Below are positions 32,401 through 57,887 of a stretch of DNA of 64,000 nt, in pieces. This DNA comes from Burkholderiaceae bacterium. GTDB lineage: Bacteria > Pseudomonadota > Gammaproteobacteria > Burkholderiales > Burkholderiaceae_B. Every line of letters begins with the position of its first letter. Position 1 is the first letter of the stretch. The stretch covers positions 1 through 64,000 of the forward strand of contig JAGOAJ010000013.1 of NCBI GenBank assembly GCA_017983955.1, given 5' to 3'. A program made the translations under genes and the position numbers. The notes beneath the pieces were generated by a model. It saw only the letters and a program-made list of their open reading frames with translations, was not told the DNA's origin and made no database searches.

Positions 32401-32928
32401 TTGATTTTATAAGTGCGTCCGCTATTACGTGTCGCGCTGTTGGTTTTTTTGGTCTGCCCGTCTGTACACGTACTGCCATTGGTCTTTTAGGTGCGTTCGT
32501 AGTTTCCTCTGTTAGATTGCTGGTCCTGTAGGAACGTCCGCCCTCTCGTGGTGGGCTCCTTACTCTGCGGCCCCGCTGCGCGAAAGCCGCTGCCGTAAGG
32601 ACCCACCACTACGGGCTAGCCACACCTTCAGAGCAGGGCTTGTAGGGGTGATTGTGTGCAAGTTGTGAGTTTTAATCGAGTTGCTAACACCCGTTGAATT
32701 AGCGATGTGGCATCGTCTAGGACGTCTTTCTGCAGCCCACCAGGCAGGCAACCGTTGGGTTCACGGCAGGACCCTTTGCGAAGCGGGGGTCCAGAGTGAA
32801 GCCCGACGGTTGACAGCCGCTGGTACTGAAGAAACTAAACTCTGTGACGGTTGACAGCCGATGGTACGGACGAAACAAACGACGTAGCGATTGATAGCCT
32901 GATGCTACCCAAGAAACGAAACCATAAA
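32401..32928 (+). repeat. Dispersed intergenic element, copy A
   Basis: This copy fills most of the gene-free stretch 32323-33036 between the two convergent Liv operons. It has a 5' arm of about four degenerate ~40-bp units (each around ggtcttgtaggtacgttcg, 32401-32550), hairpin A1 (32548-32609: 8-bp stem gtggtggg/cccaccac, a bulge, then 7-bp tccttac/gtaagga), a spacer, hairpin A2 (32757-32804: gggttcac/gtgaagccc and ggacc/ggtcc), and three head-to-tail 41-bp units (32806-32846, 32847-32887, 32888-32928). It is a diverged relative of copies B and C. It has no plausible coding frame. Confidence 0.85.
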
Positions 32929-47398: not shown

Positions 47399-48283
47399 AT
47401 GAGCTGGATCGAAAAAATTCTGCCGCCACGCATTAACCGCAACCAGGATGCAAGCGCGCGTCGTGTTCCAGAAGGAATCTGGGTGAAGTGCCCATCCTGC
47501 GAAACGGTGCTGTACAAAGAAGACCTTAAGGCCACGTTAAACGTGTGCCCGCAGTGTGATCACCATATGCGTATAGGCGCACGTGCGCGTATAGATTCAC
47601 TGCTGGACCGTGAAGGCCGCGTGGAAATTGGCCAGAATATACGACCAGTAGATCCATTGAAGTTTCGCGATAGTCGTAAATACACAGAGCGTGTCTCAGA
47701 AGCTACCAAGCTGACTGGCGAAAGCGAAGCCATGATCACCATGAGCGGCAGCATCTTGTCCATGCCCGTAGTGCTTTCATGCTTCGAGTTCGAGTTCATG
47801 GGTGGCTCTATGGGGTCGGTCGTGGGCGAACGTTTCGCACGCGGTGTACAGGAAGCCATCAAGAACCGCACGCCCTTTATTTGCGTAGCATCTTCTGGCG
47901 GCGCGCGTATGCAGGAAAGCTTATTTTCGCTACTGCAAATGGCCAAAACCAATGCGATGCTTACGCAGTTGTCCGAAGCCGGCCTGCCGTTTATCAGCAT
48001 ACTGACCGATCCCACCATGGGTGGCGTGTCGGCCAGCTTCGCTTTCATGGGTGATGTGGTGATTGCTGAACCTAAGGCGCTGATCGGCTTTGCCGGTCCA
48101 CGGGTGATTGAGCAGACAGTACGCGAAAAACTGCCCGAGGGTTTTCAGCGCTCTGAATTTTTGATGACCAAGGGTGCTATAGACATGGTGATAGATCGTC
48201 GCGCCATGCGCGAGGAACTGGCCCACTTGATGGCCTTGCTGACGCGTCAGCCTGTGGATGTTATTGCCAAGGTGGCTTCGTAG
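47399..48283 (+). CDS. accD: Acetyl-CoA carboxylase carboxyltransferase subunit beta
   Basis: A 294-residue subunit that with AccA transfers carboxyl from biotin to acetyl-CoA, the committed step of fatty-acid synthesis. The N-terminal zinc ribbon is [20 protein letters not shown] followed by PQCDHHM. The crotonase-like core has [34 protein letters not shown] and [15 protein letters not shown]. The usual next gene in this cluster, folC, is missing. Repeat copy B begins within 10 bases of the stop. Confidence 0.96.
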
Positions 48284-48291
48284 GTCTTGGC

Positions 48292-48649
48292 CTTGTAGGT
48301 ACGTTCGCCTTTACATGTGACATCGTCGGTATATTAAGCACCACCGCCCTTACGTACCGAGCTCTTTACTCGGTGGCCCGCTACGCGAAGCCACTCCCGT
48401 AAAGACTCGCTACTCCGGGCTCGTTGCGCGTTCGGAATAACGCTTTTAGGGACTGTTGGATTAGCTTGTGGCGCTTCAGCTGTTATGTCTTTCAGCAGCC
48501 CATAAGGCAGGCAAGCGTTGGACTCACGGGAGAGCCTTACCCTCCGCGGGGGCTCAGAGTGAGTCTGACGGTTGACGGCCGATGCTACTGAAGAAACGAA
48601 ACCACGCAACGGTTGACCACCGATGCTACATAAGAAATATAGTCGGCAC
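48292..48649 (+). repeat. Dispersed intergenic element, copy B
   Basis: The stretch 48284-48690 after accD holds this element and no gene. It has one 5' arm unit (cttgtaggtacgttcg), hairpin B1 (48363-48405: tctttac/gtaaaga, inner gtggc/gccac), a spacer, hairpin B2 (48521-48565: gactcac/gtgagtc, inner gagcc/ggctc), and two 41-bp units (48568-48608, 48609-48649). Bases 48292-48567 align with the reverse complement of 57563-57838 with about 14 mismatches and no gaps. A 110-residue minus-strand reading frame across it has no family features and is not called. Confidence 0.88.
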
Positions 48650-48693
48650 GCAAGAAACCTCACCATCCCTTAACAACTATTCATACCGATTTT

Positions 48694-48722
48694 TTGTAGA
48701 TACCGCCCGCGCGTGTTAGAAT
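48694..48722 (+). promoter_or_regulatory. Sigma-70-type promoter of the small basic ORF
   Basis: TTGTAG at 48694-48699 and TAGAAT at 48717-48722 are separated by 17 bases, an almost ideal -35/-10 pair. A GGAG ribosome site follows at 48751, and an ATG at 48761. Confidence 0.7.
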
Positions 48723-48760
48723 CAGAGGTTAACTGAATACAGAGCCTACCGGAGATCGAC

Positions 48761-48889
48761 ATGGCAGAAATCAAACGCAACCGCCGCAACACCATTGAGC
48801 GTCGTTGCTTGGGCAAAGCGTTCAAGCGTCTTTTCGCTCGTTCGCCCAAAGGCGTTTTCAAGATGCTTGAGAAAGTAAAGCGCGCTTGA
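48761..48889 (+). CDS. Small, strongly basic 42-residue protein of unknown function
   Basis: An ORF of 42 residues beginning MAEIKRNRRNTIERRC and ending MLEKVKRA. It is rich in Lys and Arg (about 17 of 42), has one Cys, no acidic cluster, and could form an amphipathic helix that binds nucleic acid or membrane. A clear promoter (48694), GGAG ribosome site 6 bases before the ATG, and a strong terminator (48966) mark it as a separate transcript. I do not recognise a family. It is not ribosomal protein S21, which is also small and basic but has a different sequence. It lies directly after repeat copy B. Confidence 0.7.
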   Translation: MAEIKRNRRNTIERRCLGKAFKRLFARSPKGVFKMLEKVKRA

Positions 48890-48942
48890 AGCAAAAAAGT
48901 TAGCCGCTACCGCCCATCATGGGCTGGTGCGTCGCTGGCTTA

Positions 48943-48963
48943 AGTCTTGTGTTACACAAGACT
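48943..48963 (+). other. Perfect 9-bp hairpin before the terminator
   Basis: The sequence agtcttgtg-tta-cacaagact forms a 9-bp perfect stem with a 3-base loop, three bases upstream of the terminator. With the 77-base 3' untranslated region it could stabilise the message or belong to a small RNA made from the same transcript. Confidence 0.55.
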
Positions 48964-48965
48964 AC

Positions 48966-49000
48966 AAACCGCAGAATCTATATGATCTGCGGTTTTTTTT
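48966..49000 (+). terminator. Intrinsic terminator after the small basic ORF
   Basis: A 10-bp perfect stem, aaaccgcaga / tctgcggttt, with a 10-base loop is followed by eight T (48993-49000). This is a textbook Rho-independent terminator. Confidence 0.92.
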
Positions 49001-49052
49001 ATCATATTATGGTCACATGCCTTTTAAACACTAAATAAATAGAAGAATCAGC

Positions 49053-49979
49053 ATGGCAACGTGGCCTTATCTCTTTACGGTGTTAACGCCCACCTATAAC
49101 CGCGCTCATACGCTAGAGCGGGCGTATCAGTCTTTACGCGACCAGACATTTCAGGATTTTGAATGGGTGGTGGTGGACGATGGCTCAACTGACAATACGC
49201 GTGAGCTAATTGAGGCGTGGCAACAAGAAGCACGCTTTCCCATACGGTACGTCTGGCAGGAAAATCAGCATAAGAAGACTGCCTTTAATCACGGCGTGCA
49301 ATTGGCCAGGGGCGAGTGGATAGTTGCGCTGGACAGCGATGACAGTCTGGATGTGAATGCCTTGCACAGCATGGCCGCCATTTGGCATGACATCCCGGTG
49401 GATGCGCGCCCCTCTTTTGTCGCCATCACTGGACTGTGCGCCAGACCTGACGGCAAGGTGGTGGGGGATATGTACCCCAAGGATGTGTTCGATTCGAATG
49501 CGCTGGATATCACCTTTCGATACGATATTCGTGGCGAGAAATTTGGCTGTTTGTCTACCGAAATACTGCGTAACTTTCCCTTTCCAGAAGATGTGCCTGG
49601 TTTTGTGCCCGAGAGCTTGGTTTGGCGTGCGATGGCAAGGGCTGGTTATCAGATCCGCTTTGTTAATCAGGTGTTTCGGGTGTATTACGACAGCGCCGAC
49701 TCTTTGTCGCGCCAGGGCAAGGAAAGCCAACAACATGCACTGGGTCTATGGTTGTTGGCGCAGGATATGGTGGTTGAGTGCTTGCCATGGTTCCGCTATC
49801 GGCCGCAGGCCTTTTTAATGGCGGCAGCGCGTTACACCCGGTTTAGCCTGCATTTGCGCCATGCCGGGCAGCCTTATCCCTTGGGGCGTGGCTTGAGAGG
49901 TTGGAAGTCGCGTCTGCTGGTGGCCTTGATGTGGCCTATGGGCGTGTTGCTGTATGTCAGGGACCGTATGCGGGCCTAA
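49053..49979 (+). CDS. Family 2 glycosyltransferase
   Basis: A 308-residue GT-A fold enzyme: the N-terminal FTVLTPTYNRAHTLERAYQS, VVDDGSTDNTRELI for nucleotide binding, and the metal-binding LDSDDSLD. The C-terminal about 80 residues include a basic, partly hydrophobic stretch (LLVALMWPMGVLLYVRDRMR) that may touch the membrane. Family 2 members add sugars to polysaccharides or lipids. The acceptor is unknown, and no other glycan genes are next to it, so it is an isolated transferase. Confidence 0.85.
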   Translation: MATWPYLFTVLTPTYNRAHTLERAYQSLRDQTFQDFEWVVVDDGSTDNTRELIEAWQQEARFPIRYVWQENQHKKTAFNHGVQLARGEWIVALDSDDSLDVNALHSMAAIWHDIPVDARPSFVAITGLCARPDGKVVGDMYPKDVFDSNALDITFRYDIRGEKFGCLSTEILRNFPFPEDVPGFVPESLVWRAMARAGYQIRFVNQVFRVYYDSADSLSRQGKESQQHALGLWLLAQDMVVECLPWFRYRPQAFLMAAARYTRFSLHLRHAGQPYPLGRGLRGWKSRLLVALMWPMGVLLYVRDRMRA

Positions 49980-50051
49980 TACTAGAAACTAGAAGCCCGC
50001 TAGCGTCGTGATAGATGCAGCGGGACTATAAACCCTGGAGTGGGTGGTTTT

Positions 50052-50558
50052 TTAGTGCAGCTGGTCAGATGGCGGCAAGTAGTTGGCGGGCAGGTCTGGA
50101 GCGTCTGCTTGCGGGTCATCCTGGTCGGTGTCGTTGTCATCGTCCAGGTCATCAGAAATAGGTTCGTCGACCATGGCAAACGGCAGCAGGTCTTGTAGGC
50201 TGTCTGTCCAACCCACTTCATCGCCCTCCAGGTCTACTTTGATAAAGCGCGCGCCTTCCAGTTCGGAAAGTTGTATGGCCCACAGGTATTCGCAATCGAA
50301 GACTTCATTCTCGGCCATATCCAGGCCGCCTTTGTTACCCAGCAACCGTGCGCCATTGCCGCCGACTTCTACGGTGATGAAGTCGTCCAGTTTGTCCTGG
50401 GGCTGCAAGGGCACGGCAAAGACTACCCATTCAAAGCCTGTTTCAGTGGCGTCCATGACCTGCGCTAGCACGGGTTTGCCCATGTAGGCGCTTAGGGCAT
50501 CGGCGGTGCGTCCCAGTAAATCGATTTCGTCGGTGGTAAAAACTAAATTGGCTGGCAT
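50052..50558 (-). CDS. Hypothetical protein with acidic C-terminal tail
   Basis: A 168-residue soluble protein that I do not recognise. The first about 120 residues look like one compact domain (FTTDEIDLLGRTADALSAYM, EWVVFAVPLQPQDKLDDFIT, LWAIQLSELEGARFIKVDLE). The last about 45 are an acidic, low-complexity tail (ISDDLDDDNDTDQDD). There is no signal peptide, membrane segment or known motif. It is convergent with the glycosyltransferase and divergent from ettA. Confidence 0.7.
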   Translation of the reverse strand: MPANLVFTTDEIDLLGRTADALSAYMGKPVLAQVMDATETGFEWVVFAVPLQPQDKLDDFITVEVGGNGARLLGNKGGLDMAENEVFDCEYLWAIQLSELEGARFIKVDLEGDEVGWTDSLQDLLPFAMVDEPISDDLDDDNDTDQDDPQADAPDLPANYLPPSDQLH

Positions 50559-50680
50559 GGTATGGGTCCGTAAACAAGCTAATCATTTTAAGCCATATAC
50601 GCGCCTGGTAGTTAGTGGCCCCTTTATCTGGCGGTACAGCCTACAATCGTCATTTTACTTACCTTGCTGACTACGCTTAC

Positions 50681-52354
50681 ATGGCTCAATACGTATATAC
50701 GATGAATCGGGTCGGCAAAATCGTGCCGCCAAAACGGCAGATTTTGCGCGATATTTCCTTGTCTTTCTTTCCGGGCGCAAAAATCGGCGTGCTGGGATTG
50801 AATGGTTCGGGTAAATCAACGCTGCTGAAAATTATGGCAGGTGTTGATAAGGATATCGAGGGTGAAGCGATACCTATGCCAGGGCTGAATATTGGTTATC
50901 TGCCTCAGGAGCCTTTGCTGAATCCCGAGCACACCGTGCGGGAATCTGTCGAAGAAGGTCTGGGTGCTTTATTCAGCGCTCGCAAACGGTTGGATGAGGT
51001 CTATTCAGAATACGCAGAACCGGATGCTGATTTCGACGCTTTAGCGGCGGAGCAGGGCGAACTGGAAGCCATCATTTCTGCTGCGGCATCCAGTGGTTCT
51101 GACGATATCGAGCACCAAATGGAAATCGCTGCCGACGCCTTGCGTTTGGCGCCTTGGGATGCGATTGTTGGCAAGCTGTCTGGTGGCGAAAAACGTCGGA
51201 TAGCTCTGTGCCGTTTGTTGCTGTCCAAGCCCGACATGCTACTGCTGGATGAACCCACTAACCACCTGGATGCAGAAAGCGTCGAATGGCTAGAGCAGTT
51301 TTTACGCCAGTTCCCCGGGACTGTAGTTGGTGTTACCCATGATCGCTACTTCCTGGATAACGCCGCTGACTGGATACTAGAGCTAGACCGTGGCCACGGC
51401 ATACCCTGGAAGGGTAATTACAGTTCCTGGCTAGAGCAAAAAGAAGCTCGCCTGGAGCAGGAAGAATCCACAGAATCGGCGCGTCAGCGCACCATCAAGA
51501 AAGAACTTGAGTGGGTCAGACAGAACCCCAAGGGACGACAGGCCAAAGCTAAAGCCCGTTTGGCGCGCTTCGAGGAACTGTCATCCCACGAATACCAGAA
51601 GCGTAACGAAACCCAGGAAATCTTCATTCCTGTGGCTGAACGCTTGGGTAACGAAGTCATAGAGTTCAACAATGTCAGCAAGTCTTATGGCGAGCGTCTG
51701 CTAATTGATAATTTAAGCTTCAAGGTGCCACCTGGTGCGATTGTTGGCATTATCGGGCCTAACGGGGCGGGTAAATCTACCTTGTTCCGCATGATCGCGG
51801 GTCAGGAACAGGCTGACTCCGGCGAATTGAAAGTAGGGCAGACAGTCAAGTTGGCGTTTGTTGATCAGTCACGTGAGTCTTTACCTGATGGGAAAACTGT
51901 CTTCGAGGCGATTTCTGATGGTGCTGACATACTGACGGTGGGGCGTTTCGAGATGTCGTCCCGAGCCTATCTGGGTCGATTCAATTTCCGTGGCGGCGAT
52001 CAGAATAAGCAGGTCGGGAACTTGTCCGGTGGCGAGCGTGGTCGTCTGCATTTGGCTAAAACCTTGATTGCTGGTGGCAACGTACTGCTGTTGGATGAAC
52101 CATCCAACGACTTGGACGTGGAAACCTTGCGCGCGCTGGAAGACGCCTTATTGGAATTTGCCGGTACGGTGATGGTGATCAGTCATGATCGGTGGTTTTT
52201 GGATCGTATCGCTACGCATATCCTGGCCTTTGAAGGTGATTCTCAAGCCATATTCTTCGATGGTAACTACCAGGAATATGAAGCCGACAAAAAACTGCGT
52301 CTGGGCGAAGAGGGCGCCAAGCCTAAGCGCCTGCGTTATAAATCCCTGAAATAA
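50681..52354 (+). CDS. ettA: Energy-dependent translational throttle protein EttA
   Basis: A 557-residue ABC-F protein that binds the ribosomal E site and gates entry into elongation according to ATP/ADP. It has two ABC domains (GLNGSGKST...LSGGEKRR...[11 protein letters not shown] and GPNGAGKST...LSGGERGR...[11 protein letters not shown]), no membrane part, and a linker with [20 protein letters not shown] that matches EttA. The frame is open from 50615, but the ATG at 50681 ([18 protein letters not shown]) is the family start. The isochorismatase-like gene starts 9 bases after its stop. Confidence 0.96.
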
Positions 52355-52363
52355 AGGAATGTT

Positions 52364-52906
52364 ATGGCCGTGTTAGCCGCTCATCAGTCTGTGTTGTTGG
52401 TTGTGGATATGCAGGTGTCTTTATTGCCTGCCATTCACGATAGCGCGGCCCTGATAGGGCGTGCTACCCGGTTGTCACAGGCCGCGCAGTTGCTAGGCGT
52501 TCCAGTGTTGGCTACCGAGCACTGGGTCGATAAAGTGGGGGCGACTACCCCGGAATTGTTGCCCGCCATAGATACTGTTCTACATAAAACGCATTTTGAC
52601 GCCACACGTGAGTCGGATTTTTTATCGGCGTTGCCAGTGGGTAGAACCAAGGTGTTGTTAATTGGCACCGAGGCCCATGTGTGCGTGTTACAAACCGGTT
52701 TGGGTCTGGCAGCGCAGGGATATGCCCCTGTCTTGGTCACGGATTGCATAGGGTCTCGTCGGCCCTCAGACCACGCAGCAGCGTGCCAGCGCTGGAGCCA
52801 TTACGGTCTAGAGCAGATTACGGCAGAAATGGCGATGTTTGAATGGCTGGAAACACCGGCCCACCCTCAATTTCGTCAGGTATTGCAGTTGATCAAGGCG
52901 GGTTAA
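52364..52906 (+). CDS. Isochorismatase-family hydrolase
   Basis: A 180-residue cysteine hydrolase of the isochorismatase-like fold. Candidate catalytic residues are Asp15 (LLVVDMQ), Lys75 (HKTHFDA) and Cys107 (GTEAHVCVLQT), the usual triad. Members of this size (YcaC-like, nicotinamidase-like) hydrolyse amides or vinyl ethers, and the substrate is unknown. It lies 9 bases after ettA and may share its transcript. Confidence 0.85.
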   Translation: MAVLAAHQSVLLVVDMQVSLLPAIHDSAALIGRATRLSQAAQLLGVPVLATEHWVDKVGATTPELLPAIDTVLHKTHFDATRESDFLSALPVGRTKVLLIGTEAHVCVLQTGLGLAAQGYAPVLVTDCIGSRRPSDHAAACQRWSHYGLEQITAEMAMFEWLETPAHPQFRQVLQLIKAG

Positions 52907-53019
52907 TCTCCGGGCGCCGTGCATGCGTTTCAGCGGGTCTGTTTTTCAGGTGGAACTGTTACAGATGTAGCGTCGCATAACAACTCTTAGTATTTTATGG
53001 GGCTAAAATTTTCTCAATA

Positions 53020-53033
53020 GGCTAACGTTAGCC
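53020..53033. promoter_or_regulatory. 14-bp perfect palindrome upstream of the OsmB-like gene
   Basis: The sequence ggctaacgttagcc is its own reverse complement and ends 43 bases before the lipoprotein start, where an operator would overlap the promoter. The 170-base gap 52907-53076 is otherwise AT-rich with no gene. A GGAG at 53067 is the ribosome site. Confidence 0.5.
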
Positions 53034-53076
53034 ATTGCTTGTGTGATAGCAGTAAATGTGTATTACGGAGATTATT

Positions 53077-53304
53077 ATGAAGTTCACACTATTCGGTAAA
53101 ACGTTGGCAGTTGCGGTCTTGGCTGTAACCATGGTTGGCTGTTCTTCATGGGACAACATGAGCCATCGTCAAAGAAGTACGGTCACCGGCGCAGGCTTGG
53201 GTGGCGTAGCAGGCGCAGTCATTACTGGTGGCGGCGTACTGGGTACTGTGGGTGGTGCTGCCATAGGCGGCGTGATTGGCGATCAAGTCGGCAAAAACCG
53301 CTAA
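53077..53304 (+). CDS. OsmB-like lipoprotein with glycine-zipper segment
   Basis: A 75-residue small lipoprotein. The signal peptide MKFTLFGKTLAVAVLAVTMV ends at a lipobox-like VGC, so lipidation at the Cys is likely. The mature part has a Gly-rich membrane-spanning segment (AGLGGVAGAVITGGGVLG, GGAAIGGVIGDQVG), the glycine-zipper 2TM pattern of OsmB-like envelope proteins linked to osmotic or envelope stress. The ATG at 53077 has GGAG 6 bases ahead. It ends in a shared terminator with the betT-like gene. Confidence 0.85.
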   Translation: MKFTLFGKTLAVAVLAVTMVGCSSWDNMSHRQRSTVTGAGLGGVAGAVITGGGVLGTVGGAAIGGVIGDQVGKNR

Positions 53305-53362
53305 GCGTCAGTTTGCGGCGTGGGCGTAGTGCCCATACGTTGCGAGCCGAGGCCCTACAAAG

Positions 53363-53404
53363 AAGGCCACTGTTTAATGCGCAAGTATTAAACAGTGGCC
53401 TTTT
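53363..53404. terminator. Strong bidirectional intrinsic terminator
   Basis: A 16-bp perfect stem (aaggccactgtttaat / attaaacagtggcctt) with an 8-base loop is followed by TTTT on the plus strand and by T-rich sequence on the minus strand. It separates the convergent OsmB-like and BCCT genes and can stop both. Confidence 0.92.
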
Positions 53405-53419
53405 CCATGGCACGCTTAT

Positions 53420-55399
53420 TTAACGCACCAGATGCAGATAGTGCAAGTGCCTTTCATACTGGTCCAAGATGTCGTTAATGATGTCTTGGCGCGTCCAGCC
53501 CATGACATCGTAGTCTTGGCCACCTTCTTTTAGATAGACTTCGGCACGGAAGTATTTGCGCGCTTCGTTAGGGTTGTCGTTGTCCTCACGGCTGACAAAA
53601 GCGGGTAATAGATGCGGACGGGGCTGTATCTCGTAGAGGAAATCAACTTCGGCATCGTGGCCCACTTCCAGGCGCACATGGGTTTCGTCCGAGGTGACCA
53701 CCGCGTCGTTGCCTTCCTTGCGTAATGCGGCAGCCACCTCTTCAAAGGCAGGCGTTATTGGGTCCTGCATAAATCGGGTGACGTGTGATCGGCGTGGGTA
53801 GCTAAGCAGGTTACGTAGCCGCCAGCGCCAGTCTTCAGCGGCAGCGCCAGAATGGGGCGTCAGGTGCAAATGGGTACGGGTGTCGCGTTTGGTGACGTCT
53901 TCTTGAAGTGCTTTAAGCAGTCCCCAGATCGATAGCATTAGCACGATAGCAAAGGGCAGGGCACTGGCAATGGTAGCTGTTTGCAGGGCTTGTAAGCCGT
54001 CTGCCAATAACAGAACTATGGCCATCACCCCCATGCCTACAGACCAGAACAGGCGCTGCCATGCTGGGGTGTTTTCCTGACCACCAGAGGCCAGCATGTC
54101 CACGACCAGCGCCCCCGAGTCGGCCGAGGTGACGAAAAACACTAACACCATCACTATGGCCAGCACAGATAATACCGATGAGAAGGGAAATTGCTCAAGG
54201 AAGGCAAACAAGGCCAGTGAGCTGTCACGCTGGGTGACATCGGCCAGACTGGTCAGCCCTTTGTTGACGACCATGTCGATGGCGGTTTCACCAAATACCG
54301 TCATCCACAGAAAGGTAAAGCCTGCAGGTACCAGGGTGACGCCTACGATGAACTCCCGTATGCTGCGTCCGCGCGATACCCGGGCGATGAACATGCCGAC
54401 GAAGGGCGACCATGACAGCCACCATCCCCAATAAAACAGTGTCCACCCGCCTAGCCAGTCAGTGGGTCGGTAAGCATAAAGATTAAATGTTTTACTGACA
54501 ATCTCCGACAGATAAGATCCAATGTTTTGCACAAACACCTGGATTAGAAACATGGTGGGGCCCAGCACCAGAACGAAGCCCAGCAGAAATACAGCCAGCA
54601 CCATGTTCAGTTCGGACAGGCGGCGTATGCCTTTGTCCAACCCCACCATGACCGATGTGGTCGCCAGTGCCGTGGCCACTATGATTAATATGATTTGCGA
54701 GGGTATGCCGACAGGAATGCCAAACAGATGGTTAAGGCCGCTGTTAATTTGCAGTACGCCAAAGCCCAGCGATGTTGCCACCCCTAATACCGTACTGACC
54801 ACCGCGAAAGTGTCGACGGCGTGACCTATGGGGCCATAAATGCGGTCGCCTATCAGGGGGTATAAGGCAGATCGCAAGGTCAAAGGTAAACCATGCCGGA
54901 AGGCAAAGTAGGCCAGACTTAACGCCACGATGGCGTAAATGGCCCAGGCGTGCAGACCCCAGTGAAAAAACGTGATCTTGATGGCTTCACGGGCGGCAAA
55001 CACCGAGCCGGGCTCACCGACCGGTGGCGCTATGGTGTGCATCAGGGGTTCGGCTACGCCGAAGAACATCAGTCCTATACCCATGCCTGCGCAAAACAGC
55101 ATAGAGAACCAGGTCGCCCCGCTATAGTCTGGCGTGCTGTGATCTGGCCCAAGCTTGATGTCGCCAAATCGGCTGACCATACAGTACACAACGGTCAGCA
55201 GGATAAGCGCGACCGACAATATGTAGAACCAGCCTGCGTACAGAATGATCCATGCCTGTACTGCAGCAAAAGCGGCTTGCGCCTGATCATGGAAAACGGT
55301 TACCAGTACTGCCAGTAAAAGCAGCAGTCCCGTTGAACTAAAAAACACCGGTGGGTTGATACTGCTGCGTTTAGGTGCGTCAGGTTCTGGTATGGCCAT
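53420..55399 (-). CDS. BCCT-family choline/glycine-betaine-type transporter (BetT-like)
   Basis: A 659-residue inner-membrane symporter of the betaine/choline/carnitine family with about 12 helices. Family segments are WFSMLFCAGMGIGLMFFGVAEP, WTLFYWGWWLSWSPFVGMF and FVTSADSGALVVDMLASGG. The long cytoplasmic C-terminal region (about 500-659) is typical of BetT and may sense osmolarity. It likely imports choline or betaine for osmoprotection, but the betAB genes are not here, so the substrate is not certain. It faces an OsmB-like gene across a shared terminator. Confidence 0.9.
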   Translation of the reverse strand: MAIPEPDAPKRSSINPPVFFSSTGLLLLLAVLVTVFHDQAQAAFAAVQAWIILYAGWFYILSVALILLTVVYCMVSRFGDIKLGPDHSTPDYSGATWFSMLFCAGMGIGLMFFGVAEPLMHTIAPPVGEPGSVFAAREAIKITFFHWGLHAWAIYAIVALSLAYFAFRHGLPLTLRSALYPLIGDRIYGPIGHAVDTFAVVSTVLGVATSLGFGVLQINSGLNHLFGIPVGIPSQIILIIVATALATTSVMVGLDKGIRRLSELNMVLAVFLLGFVLVLGPTMFLIQVFVQNIGSYLSEIVSKTFNLYAYRPTDWLGGWTLFYWGWWLSWSPFVGMFIARVSRGRSIREFIVGVTLVPAGFTFLWMTVFGETAIDMVVNKGLTSLADVTQRDSSLALFAFLEQFPFSSVLSVLAIVMVLVFFVTSADSGALVVDMLASGGQENTPAWQRLFWSVGMGVMAIVLLLADGLQALQTATIASALPFAIVLMLSIWGLLKALQEDVTKRDTRTHLHLTPHSGAAAEDWRWRLRNLLSYPRRSHVTRFMQDPITPAFEEVAAALRKEGNDAVVTSDETHVRLEVGHDAEVDFLYEIQPRPHLLPAFVSREDNDNPNEARKYFRAEVYLKEGGQDYDVMGWTRQDIINDILDQYERHLHYLHLVR

Positions 55400-55498
55400 G
55401 GTGATTTCCTGTCAGGCTGGGATAGGCGATACAAACAGTATAGTGAGCCACGTGCTGGTTGCCGCTATTTTATTGCCAGCTGACATGCATTATTCGCC

Positions 55499-56239
55499 TT
55501 AGAGCAACAATATCGTCCCTTGGACCAGGTAGACAGAACCTACGGTCAGCACCAGCCAGCGCGTCCAGCGCCGGAACTGGTGGTCTGTTAGGCGATCCAG
55601 GGCCAGCTTGCTTAGGCTAGTGCCCAGTATGGCCATAATGACGCCTATGGCCAGGGTAAGGCTATCTATATCGGCTGGGCTGGTGCCCATGATATTCATG
55701 AAGTAAATCAGTTTGGCCAAATGGGATATGGTTTGGCAGGCGGCTTTGGTGGCCACGACCATGCGTCTGTCCATCTGGCTGCGAACAAAGAATACGTCCA
55801 GCATAGGGCCGGATACACCAGCGGTGAACTGTAGGCTGGCATTCAGAAAGCCGCACAGCTGCGCTCCATACGGTGTGTTGGCTTGCGGCACCAAAGAGGC
55901 TGGTATCAATAACACCAGAAAGGGCACAGCGCCCAAGGTAAGAAGTACGGCAGCGCGGTCAGGCACAAAACCAATAAAGACAAATACACAGGCTGACAGT
56001 GCCAGCCCGATAAGATAGCGACCAAATATCCCCAAATCTATATTGCGTCGCCACATCACAGCGCGCCAGCCGTTGGCGGTCATCTGGGTGGCACCGTGCA
56101 ATACCATGGCTGTCGAAACCGGCAGCATGGCTACCAGGACACCCATGAGTATCATGCCGCCCGCCATACCAAAGATACCGGAGATGATGGATGTGGCGAT
56201 TACGACCAGGGCAAACAGTGATAATAAGCCTGCACCCAT
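55499..56239 (-). CDS. TauE/SafE-type membrane permease
   Basis: A 246-residue inner-membrane protein of about eight helices. Typical family segments are ISGIFGMAGGMILMGVL, the Gly-rich start of the transporter half, and TAGVSGPMLDVFFV. Family members are proposed to move sulfite or small organosulfur/organic acids across the inner membrane. There is no substrate evidence here. The start at 56239 is ATG. The 99-base gap to the BCCT gene probably holds the latter's promoter. Confidence 0.8.
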   Translation of the reverse strand: MGAGLLSLFALVVIATSIISGIFGMAGGMILMGVLVAMLPVSTAMVLHGATQMTANGWRAVMWRRNIDLGIFGRYLIGLALSACVFVFIGFVPDRAAVLLTLGAVPFLVLLIPASLVPQANTPYGAQLCGFLNASLQFTAGVSGPMLDVFFVRSQMDRRMVVATKAACQTISHLAKLIYFMNIMGTSPADIDSLTLAIGVIMAILGTSLSKLALDRLTDHQFRRWTRWLVLTVGSVYLVQGTILLL

Positions 56240-56483
56240 TAATATAGGGCCGGGCGGGCGATAAGATGTGGCGTTAGCTTAGGCGCGTTGGTGGTCGTCA
56301 TGGGCGGTGATGGATGTAGGTAATTTATCGGACGCTACGGCCAGTTGATAGGTATCGCGCTTTATCTGAGCCTGCACTGTACACGCCACAGGTAGGCTTG
56401 ACCAGAGCGCCATTATTGCCTTCGCTGCCGTTGTATATCTGTATGGGATTCAGTGTTTGATAATAGATAGGTAAAATCGCTGT

Positions 56484-57437
56484 ATGTCTTTAGCGTTAGA
56501 ACATCCTGTATCGGCCGAATTGGTCGCTGTATTGGCGGCGGTCACCGATGGCGTCCCGCGTGTCTTGACCACGGAGTGCGCCACGGCTTTGCCTGCTGGG
56601 CCGTTTCAGTTATTGCACCGATCTTTGCAAAGCGGCTTGCGTAGCTGGGTAGAGGCGCAAACCCATCACCCCTTGGGATATGTAGAGCAGTTGTATACCT
56701 TTGCGGATCGCGATCGTCGTGATCAGTCCGATGGTGGTCGTAATATTATTTCCGTCAGCTATCTGGGGTTGACCCGGGAAGCGGGGTATACAGGGGTTGA
56801 GCAAGTAGGTTGGCAGGACTGGTACCGCTATTTCCCCTGGGAAGAGCGCCGCGAGGGGCCACCCGCCCTGATCGACGAGCACATAGTGCCAGCCTTAACT
56901 GCCTGGGCCAGCAATGCGGGTGATGATGCGATCTTGGCCAGACAGCGCCGCCAGCGAGTGGCCGTCACCTTCGGGCTGGATGGTCACGAATGGAATGAAG
57001 AACTGGTGCTACAGCGTTATGAACTACTGTTCGAGGCAGGGCTGGTGGCCGAGGCGCATCGCAAGGACGGTGTACATGGCGGTAGTCCTGCACTGTTGAT
57101 ACCGGGCGAGTCTATGCAGTATGACCATCGGCGTATATTAGCCACTGGCATTGCCCGCTTACGGGCCAAAATCAAATACCGTCCCGTGGTGTTCGAGCTG
57201 ATGCCGCCTGAGTTTACGCTGTTGCAACTGCAGCACGCGGTCGAGGCATTGGCTGGGCGGCGCCTACATAAACAGAATTTTCGTCGTCAAATCGAACAGC
57301 AGGCATTGGTGGAGGAAACCGGCGGCGTGATAACCGGTACGCCAGGAAGGCCGGCCAAACTGTTCAGATTCAGGGGCGACGTTTTACTGGAACGTGCAAT
57401 TTCTGGCAGCAAACTGCCTTTGTCTCGAGAGATGTAA
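56484..57437 (+). CDS. Nudix-related transcriptional regulator of NAD metabolism (NadQ/NrtR type)
   Basis: A 317-residue protein with an N-terminal Nudix-like domain (about 20-150; LGLTREAGYTGVEQVGWQDW, no intact Nudix box, so hydrolysis is unlikely) and a C-terminal winged-helix domain (RPVVFELMPPEFTLLQLQHA, LHKQNFRRQIEQQALVEETG, GRPAKLFRF). This architecture fits NrtR or NadQ-type repressors that respond to ADP-ribose or NAD-related ligands. No nadA/B/C gene is beside it, although pncB lies at 41108 in this window. The 244 bases ahead (56240-56483) show no gene. Repeat copy C begins just after its stop. Confidence 0.7.
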   Translation: MSLALEHPVSAELVAVLAAVTDGVPRVLTTECATALPAGPFQLLHRSLQSGLRSWVEAQTHHPLGYVEQLYTFADRDRRDQSDGGRNIISVSYLGLTREAGYTGVEQVGWQDWYRYFPWEERREGPPALIDEHIVPALTAWASNAGDDAILARQRRQRVAVTFGLDGHEWNEELVLQRYELLFEAGLVAEAHRKDGVHGGSPALLIPGESMQYDHRRILATGIARLRAKIKYRPVVFELMPPEFTLLQLQHAVEALAGRRLHKQNFRRQIEQQALVEETGGVITGTPGRPAKLFRFRGDVLLERAISGSKLPLSREM

Positions 57438-57439
57438 GC

Positions 57440-57887
57440 TGCGTGGCTTTGTTTCTTTAGTGGCGTTGGTGGTGAATTGTTGTGTGGTTCGGTTTCTTCT
57501 GTGTCATCGGTAGTTAAGCGTTACATGGCTTCGTTTCTTCCGTATCATCGGCCGTCAACCGTCAGACTCACTCTGAGCCCCCGCTGCGCGAAAGGCTCTG
57601 CCGTGAGTCCAATGTTTGCCTGCCTGATGGACTGCTGAAAGACATAACAGCTGAAGCACCACAAGCTAATCCAACCGTCCCTAAAAGCGCTATTCCGAAC
57701 GCGCAACGAGCCCGGAGTAGCGAGTCTTTACGGGAGTGGCTTCGCGTAGCGGGCCACCGAGTAAAGAGCTCGGTACGTAAGGGCGGTGGTGCTTAATGTA
57801 CCGACGATGTCACACGTAAAGGCGAACGTACCTACAAGACCAACAAGCTAACGACGTAAAGACGAACATACCTAAAAGACCAGCAAC
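57440..57887 (-). repeat. Dispersed intergenic element, copy C (inverted relative to A and B)
   Basis: Read on the minus strand it has the same order as copies A and B. Two ~40-bp 5' arm units (about 57813-57887) are followed by hairpin 1 (57725-57767: tctttac/gtaaaga, inner gtggc/gccac), a spacer, hairpin 2 (57565-57609: gactcac/gtgagtc, inner gagcc/ggctc) and three 41-bp units (57522-57562, 57481-57521, 57440-57480). It fills most of the 628-base gene-free gap 57438-58065. The units become less alike toward the outer end. Bases 57563-57838 match copy B. Confidence 0.9.

What the first reader, a model, noticed from the sequence alone, without database searches (positions are those of the whole stretch)
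48363..57767. Six hairpins with one conserved loop and changing stems, set as inverted pairs
In each copy hairpin 1 is the reverse orientation of hairpin 2. Read in the same sense, most have GGCA-(5-bp stem)-(cttt)cgcg(c/t)agcggg-(stem)-AGA. The inner stems differ but stay paired: gcggc/gccgc (A1), ggacc/ggtcc (A2), gagcc/ggctc (B2, C2), gtggc/gccac (B1, C1). The outer stems also differ but pair (tctttac/gtaaaga, gactcac/gtgagtc, tccttac/gtaagga). Conserved loop with compensating stem changes implies selection or mobilisation as a folded form. The paired, inverted layout recalls BIMEs mobilised by RAYT (TnpA-REP) proteins, but is larger.
Basis: partly seen in the sequence, partly recalled or inferred. 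Interest (0 to 1): 0.85.

Follow-up and report, generated by a model that had tools for sequence, protein, structure and literature searches.

The report
Scattered paired DNA hairpins, covarying stems
A little-known bacterium of the Alcaligenaceae family carries about 35 scattered copies of a paired hairpin element whose loops stay the same while the stems change in step, which suggests that something recognises the folded strand; the enzyme that spreads such repeats in other bacteria was not found here.

Summary
The three window copies (32.5, 48.4, 57.6 kb) belong to a family of at least 69 hairpins at 35 loci outside predicted genes in this 3.3-Mb draft genome. A sister species has six; the other 266 family and 398 order genomes scanned gave none, with capped scoring. 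Hairpins sit as divergent pairs (31 of 34 neighbour pairs). Stems covary: 96.1% of cells pair against 73.8% shuffled and at most 50.5% slid; 15 of 18 pairs have two-sided changes. Kept fixed are an internal loop (71 of 75) and an apical GC-GNA-GC or GC-GNNA-GC (68 of 75), the rule for ultra-stable DNA mini-hairpins. Imperfect stem pairs are mostly G·T, not A·C, in each hairpin's own sense, so the paired hairpins seem constrained on opposite strands. 48 of 69 carry 3' tail units. All three window sites are empty in the sister. No Y1 transposase was found in either genome; GTAG precedes hp1 only. Best reading: REPIN/BIME-like, probably ssDNA-recognised repeat with an unidentified mobiliser; a variant of a known kind.

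The parts
32478..32538 (-). copy A, tail units of hairpin 1
   Evidence: unit pattern hit 32478-32499; tail printed
32539..32618 (-). copy A, hairpin 1 (inner stem GCGGC/GCCGC; outer TCCTTAC/GTAAGGA)
   Evidence: covariance model R1, 76.9 bits; DNA fold z -5.7
32742..32821 (+). copy A, hairpin 2 (inner GGACC/GGTCC)
   Evidence: R1 86.6 bits; DNA fold z -4.7
32822..32916 (+). copy A, 3' tail units after hairpin 2
   Evidence: BLAST matches 32724-32875 and 32845-32916 to copy B; tail printed
48286..48342 (-). copy B, tail of hairpin 1, starting just after the stop codon of the accD-like gene (48283)
   Evidence: unit pattern hit 48286-48307; alignment
48343..48422 (-). copy B, hairpin 1 (inner GTGGC/GCCAC; outer TCTTTAC/GTAAAGA)
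   Evidence: R1 52.8 bits
48423..48504 (.). copy B, centre between the two hairpins (82 nt)
   Evidence: gap length; 79-83 nt in 21 of 31 divergent pairs
48505..48583 (+). copy B, hairpin 2 (inner GAGCC/GGCTC; variant apical loop)
   Evidence: R1 76.5 bits
48584..48637 (+). copy B, tail units of hairpin 2
   Evidence: direct repeat 48568-48596 / 48609-48637
57493..57546 (-). copy C, tail units of hairpin 2
   Evidence: 351-nt inverted arms 48287-48637 / 57493-57843
57547..57625 (-). copy C, hairpin 2
   Evidence: R1 86.9 bits
57708..57787 (+). copy C, hairpin 1
   Evidence: R1 52.8 bits
57788..57884 (+). copy C, tail units of hairpin 1
   Evidence: unit pattern hits 57823-57844 and 57863-57884

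Best explanation
This is a genus-restricted family of non-coding dispersed repeats built like a large BIME/REPIN. Two hairpins of about 80 nt point away from each other around a centre of usually about 80 nt, and most are followed on the 3' side by one to four tail units spaced mostly 39 nt apart. The working form is most likely each hairpin folded from one DNA strand, for example on the lagging-strand template. A protein would read the internal loop (GNNA opposite A/C-GA) and the apical GC-GNA-GC mini-hairpin, while the stems only need to pair. Copies spread into intergenic sites in the past and exchanged hairpin modules. The mobiliser is unidentified: lost, missed in the draft assembly, or of another kind. 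Shown: covariation, fixed loops, strand asymmetry, dispersal, empty sister sites, no detectable Y1 transposase. Inferred: DNA rather than RNA as the folded form, protein recognition, transposition.
For: At least 69 hairpins in the genome (150 of 959 candidates scored) at 35 loci, none inside a predicted gene (overlap up to 40 nt was allowed). Covariation. Internal-loop motif in 71 of 75. Apical GC-GNA-GC in 57 and GC-GNNA-GC in 11 of 75 (GCAA 8, GATA 2, GGCA 1), which is the GNA/GNNA rule for stable DNA mini-hairpins (PMC4686876, passages). Imperfect pairs in own sense, distinct hairpins only: G·T 22 against A·C 3 (hp1) and 51 against 2 (hp2); hp1 and hp2 lie on opposite strands, so one transcript would carry one of them in the poorer sense. 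All three window sites lack the element in sister genome G128. Five of six G128 copies sit at sites orthologous to copies here. At one of these (L093/L072) outer and inner stem each show a compensated change while the apical loop is identical.
Against: No transposase of the expected kind. No sharp ends or target-site duplication could be set. No recent move was seen: among matches to the copy-B query the best other copy is 93% identical. Counted as distinct position states, the wobble asymmetry shrinks to 15:3 (hp1) and 8:2 (hp2). The same asymmetry would be expected of an RNA hairpin. Copies share whole hairpin modules, so the covarying changes are fewer independent events than cells; at L080/L076 replacement by another copy is as likely as stepwise change. 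At L093/L072 part of the lower stem is broken in G128, and three of six G128 copies are decayed or rearranged.
Confidence: 0.6

Rival explanations
1. A family of structured RNA elements: each hairpin acts in a transcript, for example as an mRNA 3' end protector or small RNA, and is kept for its RNA fold.
For: Covariation and G·T over A·C are equally expected for RNA. RNA folding is strong. 27 of 31 loci with genes called on both sides have at least one gene ending towards the element; 11 are convergent.
Against: The two hairpins seem constrained on opposite strands. Apical loops follow the DNA GNA/GNNA rule, including GATA and GGCA, rather than the RNA GNRA rule (recalled). No Rfam match. No promoter-like or terminator-like site in copy B, which is weak evidence because shuffles give only 0.5 and 0.4. 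4 of 31 loci are divergent.
Confidence: 0.2
2. A classical MITE: a deletion derivative of an insertion sequence with terminal inverted repeats, moved by a DDE transposase.
For: 300-400 bp, intergenic, and the outer tail units of the two sides look like imperfect inverted copies of each other (by eye on the alignment). Sister sites are empty.
Against: Tail number varies from 0 to 4, so no fixed ends were seen. No target duplication was visible at two empty sites. A DDE transposase reads duplex ends and would not need covarying hairpins (general knowledge). Copy B has no blastn match in the plasmid or phage collections. DDE families were not searched in the genome.
Confidence: 0.1
3. Neutral upkeep: perfect stems arise by template switching in quasi-palindromes and by gene conversion between copies, without selection for the fold.
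For: Identical hp2 modules occur in copies with different hp1 (L078 and L080). hp1 and hp2 distances are only weakly correlated (Mantel r 0.237, n 29). One hp1 (L080) has mismatched arms that look like a recombinant.
Against: Template switching would also tend to erase the internal loop, which is kept in 71 of 75, and would not favour G·T over A·C (inference).
Confidence: 0.1

Closest known systems
REPIN / BIME (inverted REP doublets, RAYT-mobilised)
   Same: Intergenic, inverted hairpin doublets, many copies within one genome, compensatory changes, strand-specific features of the folded strand (PMC3116915 and PMC8266576, passages)
   Different: Hairpins are about 80 nt rather than 20-40; each pairs within itself rather than with its partner; GTAG only at hp1; tail units of 39 nt; no RAYT found in either genome
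CGTC-tagged and untagged REP-like palindromes
   Same: Palindromic dispersed families without a dedicated transposase are on record (PMC3733652, abstract and passages)
   Different: No unpaired CGTC tag was recognised by eye (not tested by a script); larger, with an internal loop and tail units
MITEs
   Same: Size, intergenic sites, inverted outer units
   Different: No fixed ends and no target duplication seen; cognate transposase not searched beyond Y1; hairpins covary
IS200/IS605 (IS608) end hairpins
   Same: Idea of a strand-specific hairpin with unpaired bases read by a protein (PMC8266576, passages)
   Different: No Y1 transposase found; hairpins are far longer (recalled)

Membership tests
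REP/REPIN with RAYT | Cognate RAYT (Y1_Tnp, PF01797) in the genome | tested here: not met
   0 matches in G000 and G128 at E up to 1; 10 of 14 control genomes gave matches, 6 over cut-off. The G000 draft is 94% complete, so a missed gene is possible.
REP/REPIN with RAYT | GTAG tag 5' of the palindrome | tested here: not met
   In G000, GTAG within the first 16 nt of 30 of 38 hp1 and 0 of 31 hp2; over all 75, 30 of 40 and 2 of 35. The 30 GTTG/GTCG hits in hp2 all begin at position 13, in the outer stem.
REP/REPIN with RAYT | Inverted doublets in intergenic DNA | tested here: met
   31 of 34 neighbour pairs are '-+'; 35 of 35 loci outside predicted genes. A cruder ORF listing showed one ORF across the copy in L041.
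REP/REPIN with RAYT | Short palindromes of 20-40 bp | tested here: not met
   Model length 80; outer stem up to 14-16 bp plus 5-bp inner stem
REP/REPIN with RAYT | Strand-specific cleavage of the folded strand by the cognate protein | not testable with these tools
   needs biochemistry
MITE | Fixed terminal inverted repeats and target duplication | tested here: inconclusive
   Tail units vary from 0 to 4; two empty sites too diverged to show a duplication
MITE | Cognate transposase | not tested
   only Y1, RVT and integron integrase families were searched
Integron attC | Integron integrase in the genome | tested here: not met
   TIGR02249: 6 matches, none over cut-off; all 14 control genomes ring the same way
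Known RNA family | Rfam 15 match | tested here: not met
   0 in the window at gathering scores; 0 at E up to 5 for 48250-48760

The most novel reading that the evidence does not exclude
A class of dispersed single-strand DNA element unlike GTAG REPs: strand-specific 80-nt hairpins read by an unknown, non-Y1 protein through an internal loop and a DNA GNA mini-hairpin, with stems free to change and an array of 39-nt units as a 3' tail.
Probability: 0.3. Interest if true: 0.65.

Novelty: new variant of a known kind. Interest (0 to 1): 0.5.

Why it matters
It offers a natural set of 75 covarying hairpins in which what a recogniser would need (two loops) and what it would ignore (stem sequence) are already separated. 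It also adds a REP-like family in which no RAYT was found, and so bears on the open question of how such families spread.

Tried and rejected
Integron attC idea: no integron integrase over cut-off. RAYT or IS200 transposase: none. Reverse transcriptase: none in G000; one RVT_1 match near a contig end of G128, no link looked for. Known RNA: no Rfam match. Copy B has no match in plasmids or phages. A strict pattern found nothing in viral contigs and in genome contigs only JACCEO010000008.1; the tool warns that the window's own records may be left out there, and the pattern itself matches only 19 of the 34 copy loci here and 1 of 5 loci of the sister (a near-identical regex). An autonomous copy at two contig ends (L103, L104): the shared 411 nt shows no long open frame and no plasmid match. 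Cross-pairing of hp1 with hp2: identity within an element 0.536 against 0.526 shuffled (19 of 2000 shuffles as high), a real but tiny excess, too small to suggest one joint hairpin. Rows left out: 4 of 75 hairpins without the internal-loop pattern were dropped from the wobble counts; a first script with a narrower pattern used 62 of 75.

Literature: the listings of searches showed no paper on this element; I did not open PMC1590033, PMC2267715 (stem-loop families) or PMC12306157 (RepRanger), and the library lacks most subscription journals.

Full report
Observation. Sequence and folds at the stated places are as described. In GGNA...AGA sense the six hairpins are 32539-32618(-), 32742-32821(+), 48343-48422(-), 48505-48583(+), 57547-57625(-) and 57708-57787(+). 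Copy A lies outside the stated range. Copies B and C are a 351-nt inverted pair, 93% alike.

Extent. A 501-base query from copy B has 40 matches in the genome, itself included. A covariance model from 50 hairpins (A1, R1) finds 69 hairpins in the genome at E up to 0.01, with 150 of 959 candidates scored. These form 35 clusters: 28 divergent pairs, 3 triples and 4 single hairpins. Of 34 neighbouring hairpin pairs 31 are '-+' and 3 '+-'; the gap is 79-83 nt in 21 of the 31, 121-129 nt in 7, and 18, 143 and 173 nt in the other 3.

Distribution. Of 268 genomes of the family (this one included), only this one and one sister species of the same genus match; the sister, G128, has six at E up to 0.05. 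Of 399 genomes drawn from the order (this one included), only this one matches. Both scans used stricter filters and scored only the best 17 or 11 candidates of each genome, so a weak or scarce relative could be missed. G128 contig C46 and the public record JACCEO010000008.1, Alcaligenaceae bacterium CGII-43, have the same length (156386), so I take them as the same genome; this is an inference.

Covariation. On 75 hairpins (71 distinct), 96.1% of cells pair against 73.8% (sd 0.8) when 3' letters are shuffled and 37.1-50.5% with slid partners. There are 311 two-sided cells against 102; 15 of 18 pairs have a change on both sides (mean 12.4 in shuffles, reached by 20 of 500); the covariation score is 0.657 against 0.255. 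The alignment was fitted to the model's structure, which leans towards it; on the independent MAFFT alignment of 50 hairpins, RNAalifold predicts 18 pairs, 14 with a two-sided change. Cells are not independent events, because copies are related and share modules.

What stays fixed. The internal loop is G(G/T/A)NA opposite (A/C)GA in 71 of 75. The apical part is GC-GNA-GC in 57 of 75 with N = C 20, T 20, A 17, and GC-GNNA-GC in 11; 4 carry the variant of copy B2 and 3 are other. Passages of PMC4686876 state that GNA or GNNA loops closed by at least two G-C pairs make extraordinarily stable DNA mini-hairpins. GATA and GGCA are allowed by that rule but are not GNRA loops. This favours DNA as the folded form, without proving it.

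Strand. Reading every hairpin in its own sense, imperfect pairs are G·T far more than A·C: 27:3 (36 labelled hp1) and 61:2 (35 labelled hp2) in all (there the hp1-like L082:3184 and L107:3002 were labelled hp2). With those two relabelled it is 22:3 and 51:2 over distinct hairpins, and 15:3 and 8:2 over distinct position states. The divergent second hairpins L103:2754 and L104:838 are counted as hp1 in both calls, by the labelling rule. A run along one strand would see one hairpin of each pair in the poorer sense. So the unit under constraint seems to be one hairpin on one strand, not a joint transcript or a joint fold; hp1 and hp2 of one element are scarcely more alike than shuffled partners (0.536 against 0.526, 19 of 2000 as high).

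Tails. Of the 69 hairpins here, 48 have one to four units at the threshold used and 21 none; the first unit begins within a 3-nt range of offsets in 48 of 48 (the script looked only within the first 45 nt), and 18 of 31 spacings are 39 nt. Of 28 pattern hits for the unit in the genome, 27 lie by these elements.

Sites and history. At all three window sites G128 lacks the element: the distance between flanking matches is 409 here against 86 there after the accD-like gene, 455 against 52 after the NrtR-like gene, and 614 against 138 at copy A. R1 has no match at E up to 1 in the three G128 stretches, and at copy A only the flanks align apart from two short chance-level matches. Five of six G128 copies stand at sites orthologous to copies here, so the family predates the split; gain here and loss there cannot be told apart. 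At L093/L072 the outer CTTAC/GTAAG became CTTGC/GCAAG and the inner GCGGC/GCCGC became GCCGC/GCGGC (direction not known) with the apical loop unchanged, while part of the lower stem is broken in G128. At L080/L076 all stems differ, but L105 here has nearly the G128 outer stem, so replacement by another copy is as likely as stepwise change. Three G128 copies (L073, L074, L075) look decayed or rearranged (by eye).

Context. Of 31 loci with a gene called on both sides, 11 are convergent, 16 tandem and 4 divergent; all adjacent gene pairs in the same regions were 37 convergent, 121 tandem and 31 divergent of 189 (gene calls by my own simple coding score, not tested for significance). A cruder ORF listing had one ORF across the copy in L041. 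Flanking proteins of the nine regions printed look like ordinary housekeeping proteins (by eye); seven of eight window genes tested have a Pfam family.

Mobiliser. No Y1_Tnp in either genome at E up to 1, no RVT_1 in this genome. DDE transposases were not searched. RAYT loss, or a gap in a draft whose contigs may break at repeats, remain possible.

Comparison. REPINs are inverted doublets with compensatory changes (PMC3116915, passages). TnpA-REP proteins read folded REP strands strand-specifically through GTAG, bulge and loop (PMC8266576, passages). CGTC REPs lack a dedicated transposase, and untagged REP-like families, including one in Bordetellae, are on record (PMC3733652, passages). This family works like these, but fails the tag, size and RAYT tests, so I file it as REP-like, not as a REP.

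Noticed in passing
L103:2754-3084 and L104:616-917 (G000 C28 and C16 contig ends): A divergent subfamily of the element stands beside the same 411-nt stretch (97% alike, no long open frame) at two contig ends; it looks like an rRNA operon leader (my inference, not tested).
   Followed up: partly
G128:C2:1016-1627 (L108): A reverse transcriptase (RVT_1) match near a contig end of the sister genome; none in this genome.
   Followed up: no
G000:C36:76822-76843: A lone tail unit (3 mismatches to the pattern) with no hairpin hit on that contig.
   Followed up: no
L078, L080, L091 and window 48505-48583 (hp2): Four hp2 hairpins share an apical variant (TTACCCTCCGCGG) although two of the four elements (L080, L091) have other hp1 types, suggesting exchange of single hairpin modules between loci.
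   Followed up: partly
L080, L091, L092, L100 and others, between hp1 and hp2: Seven of 31 divergent pairs have a centre of 121-129 nt rather than about 80, as if one extra unit of about 42 nt had been inserted.
   Followed up: no
L073:1557-1602 (G128) against L089: A 46-nt core of a decayed sister copy is 98% identical to the orthologous hairpin while the flanks are 75-77% identical.
   Followed up: no
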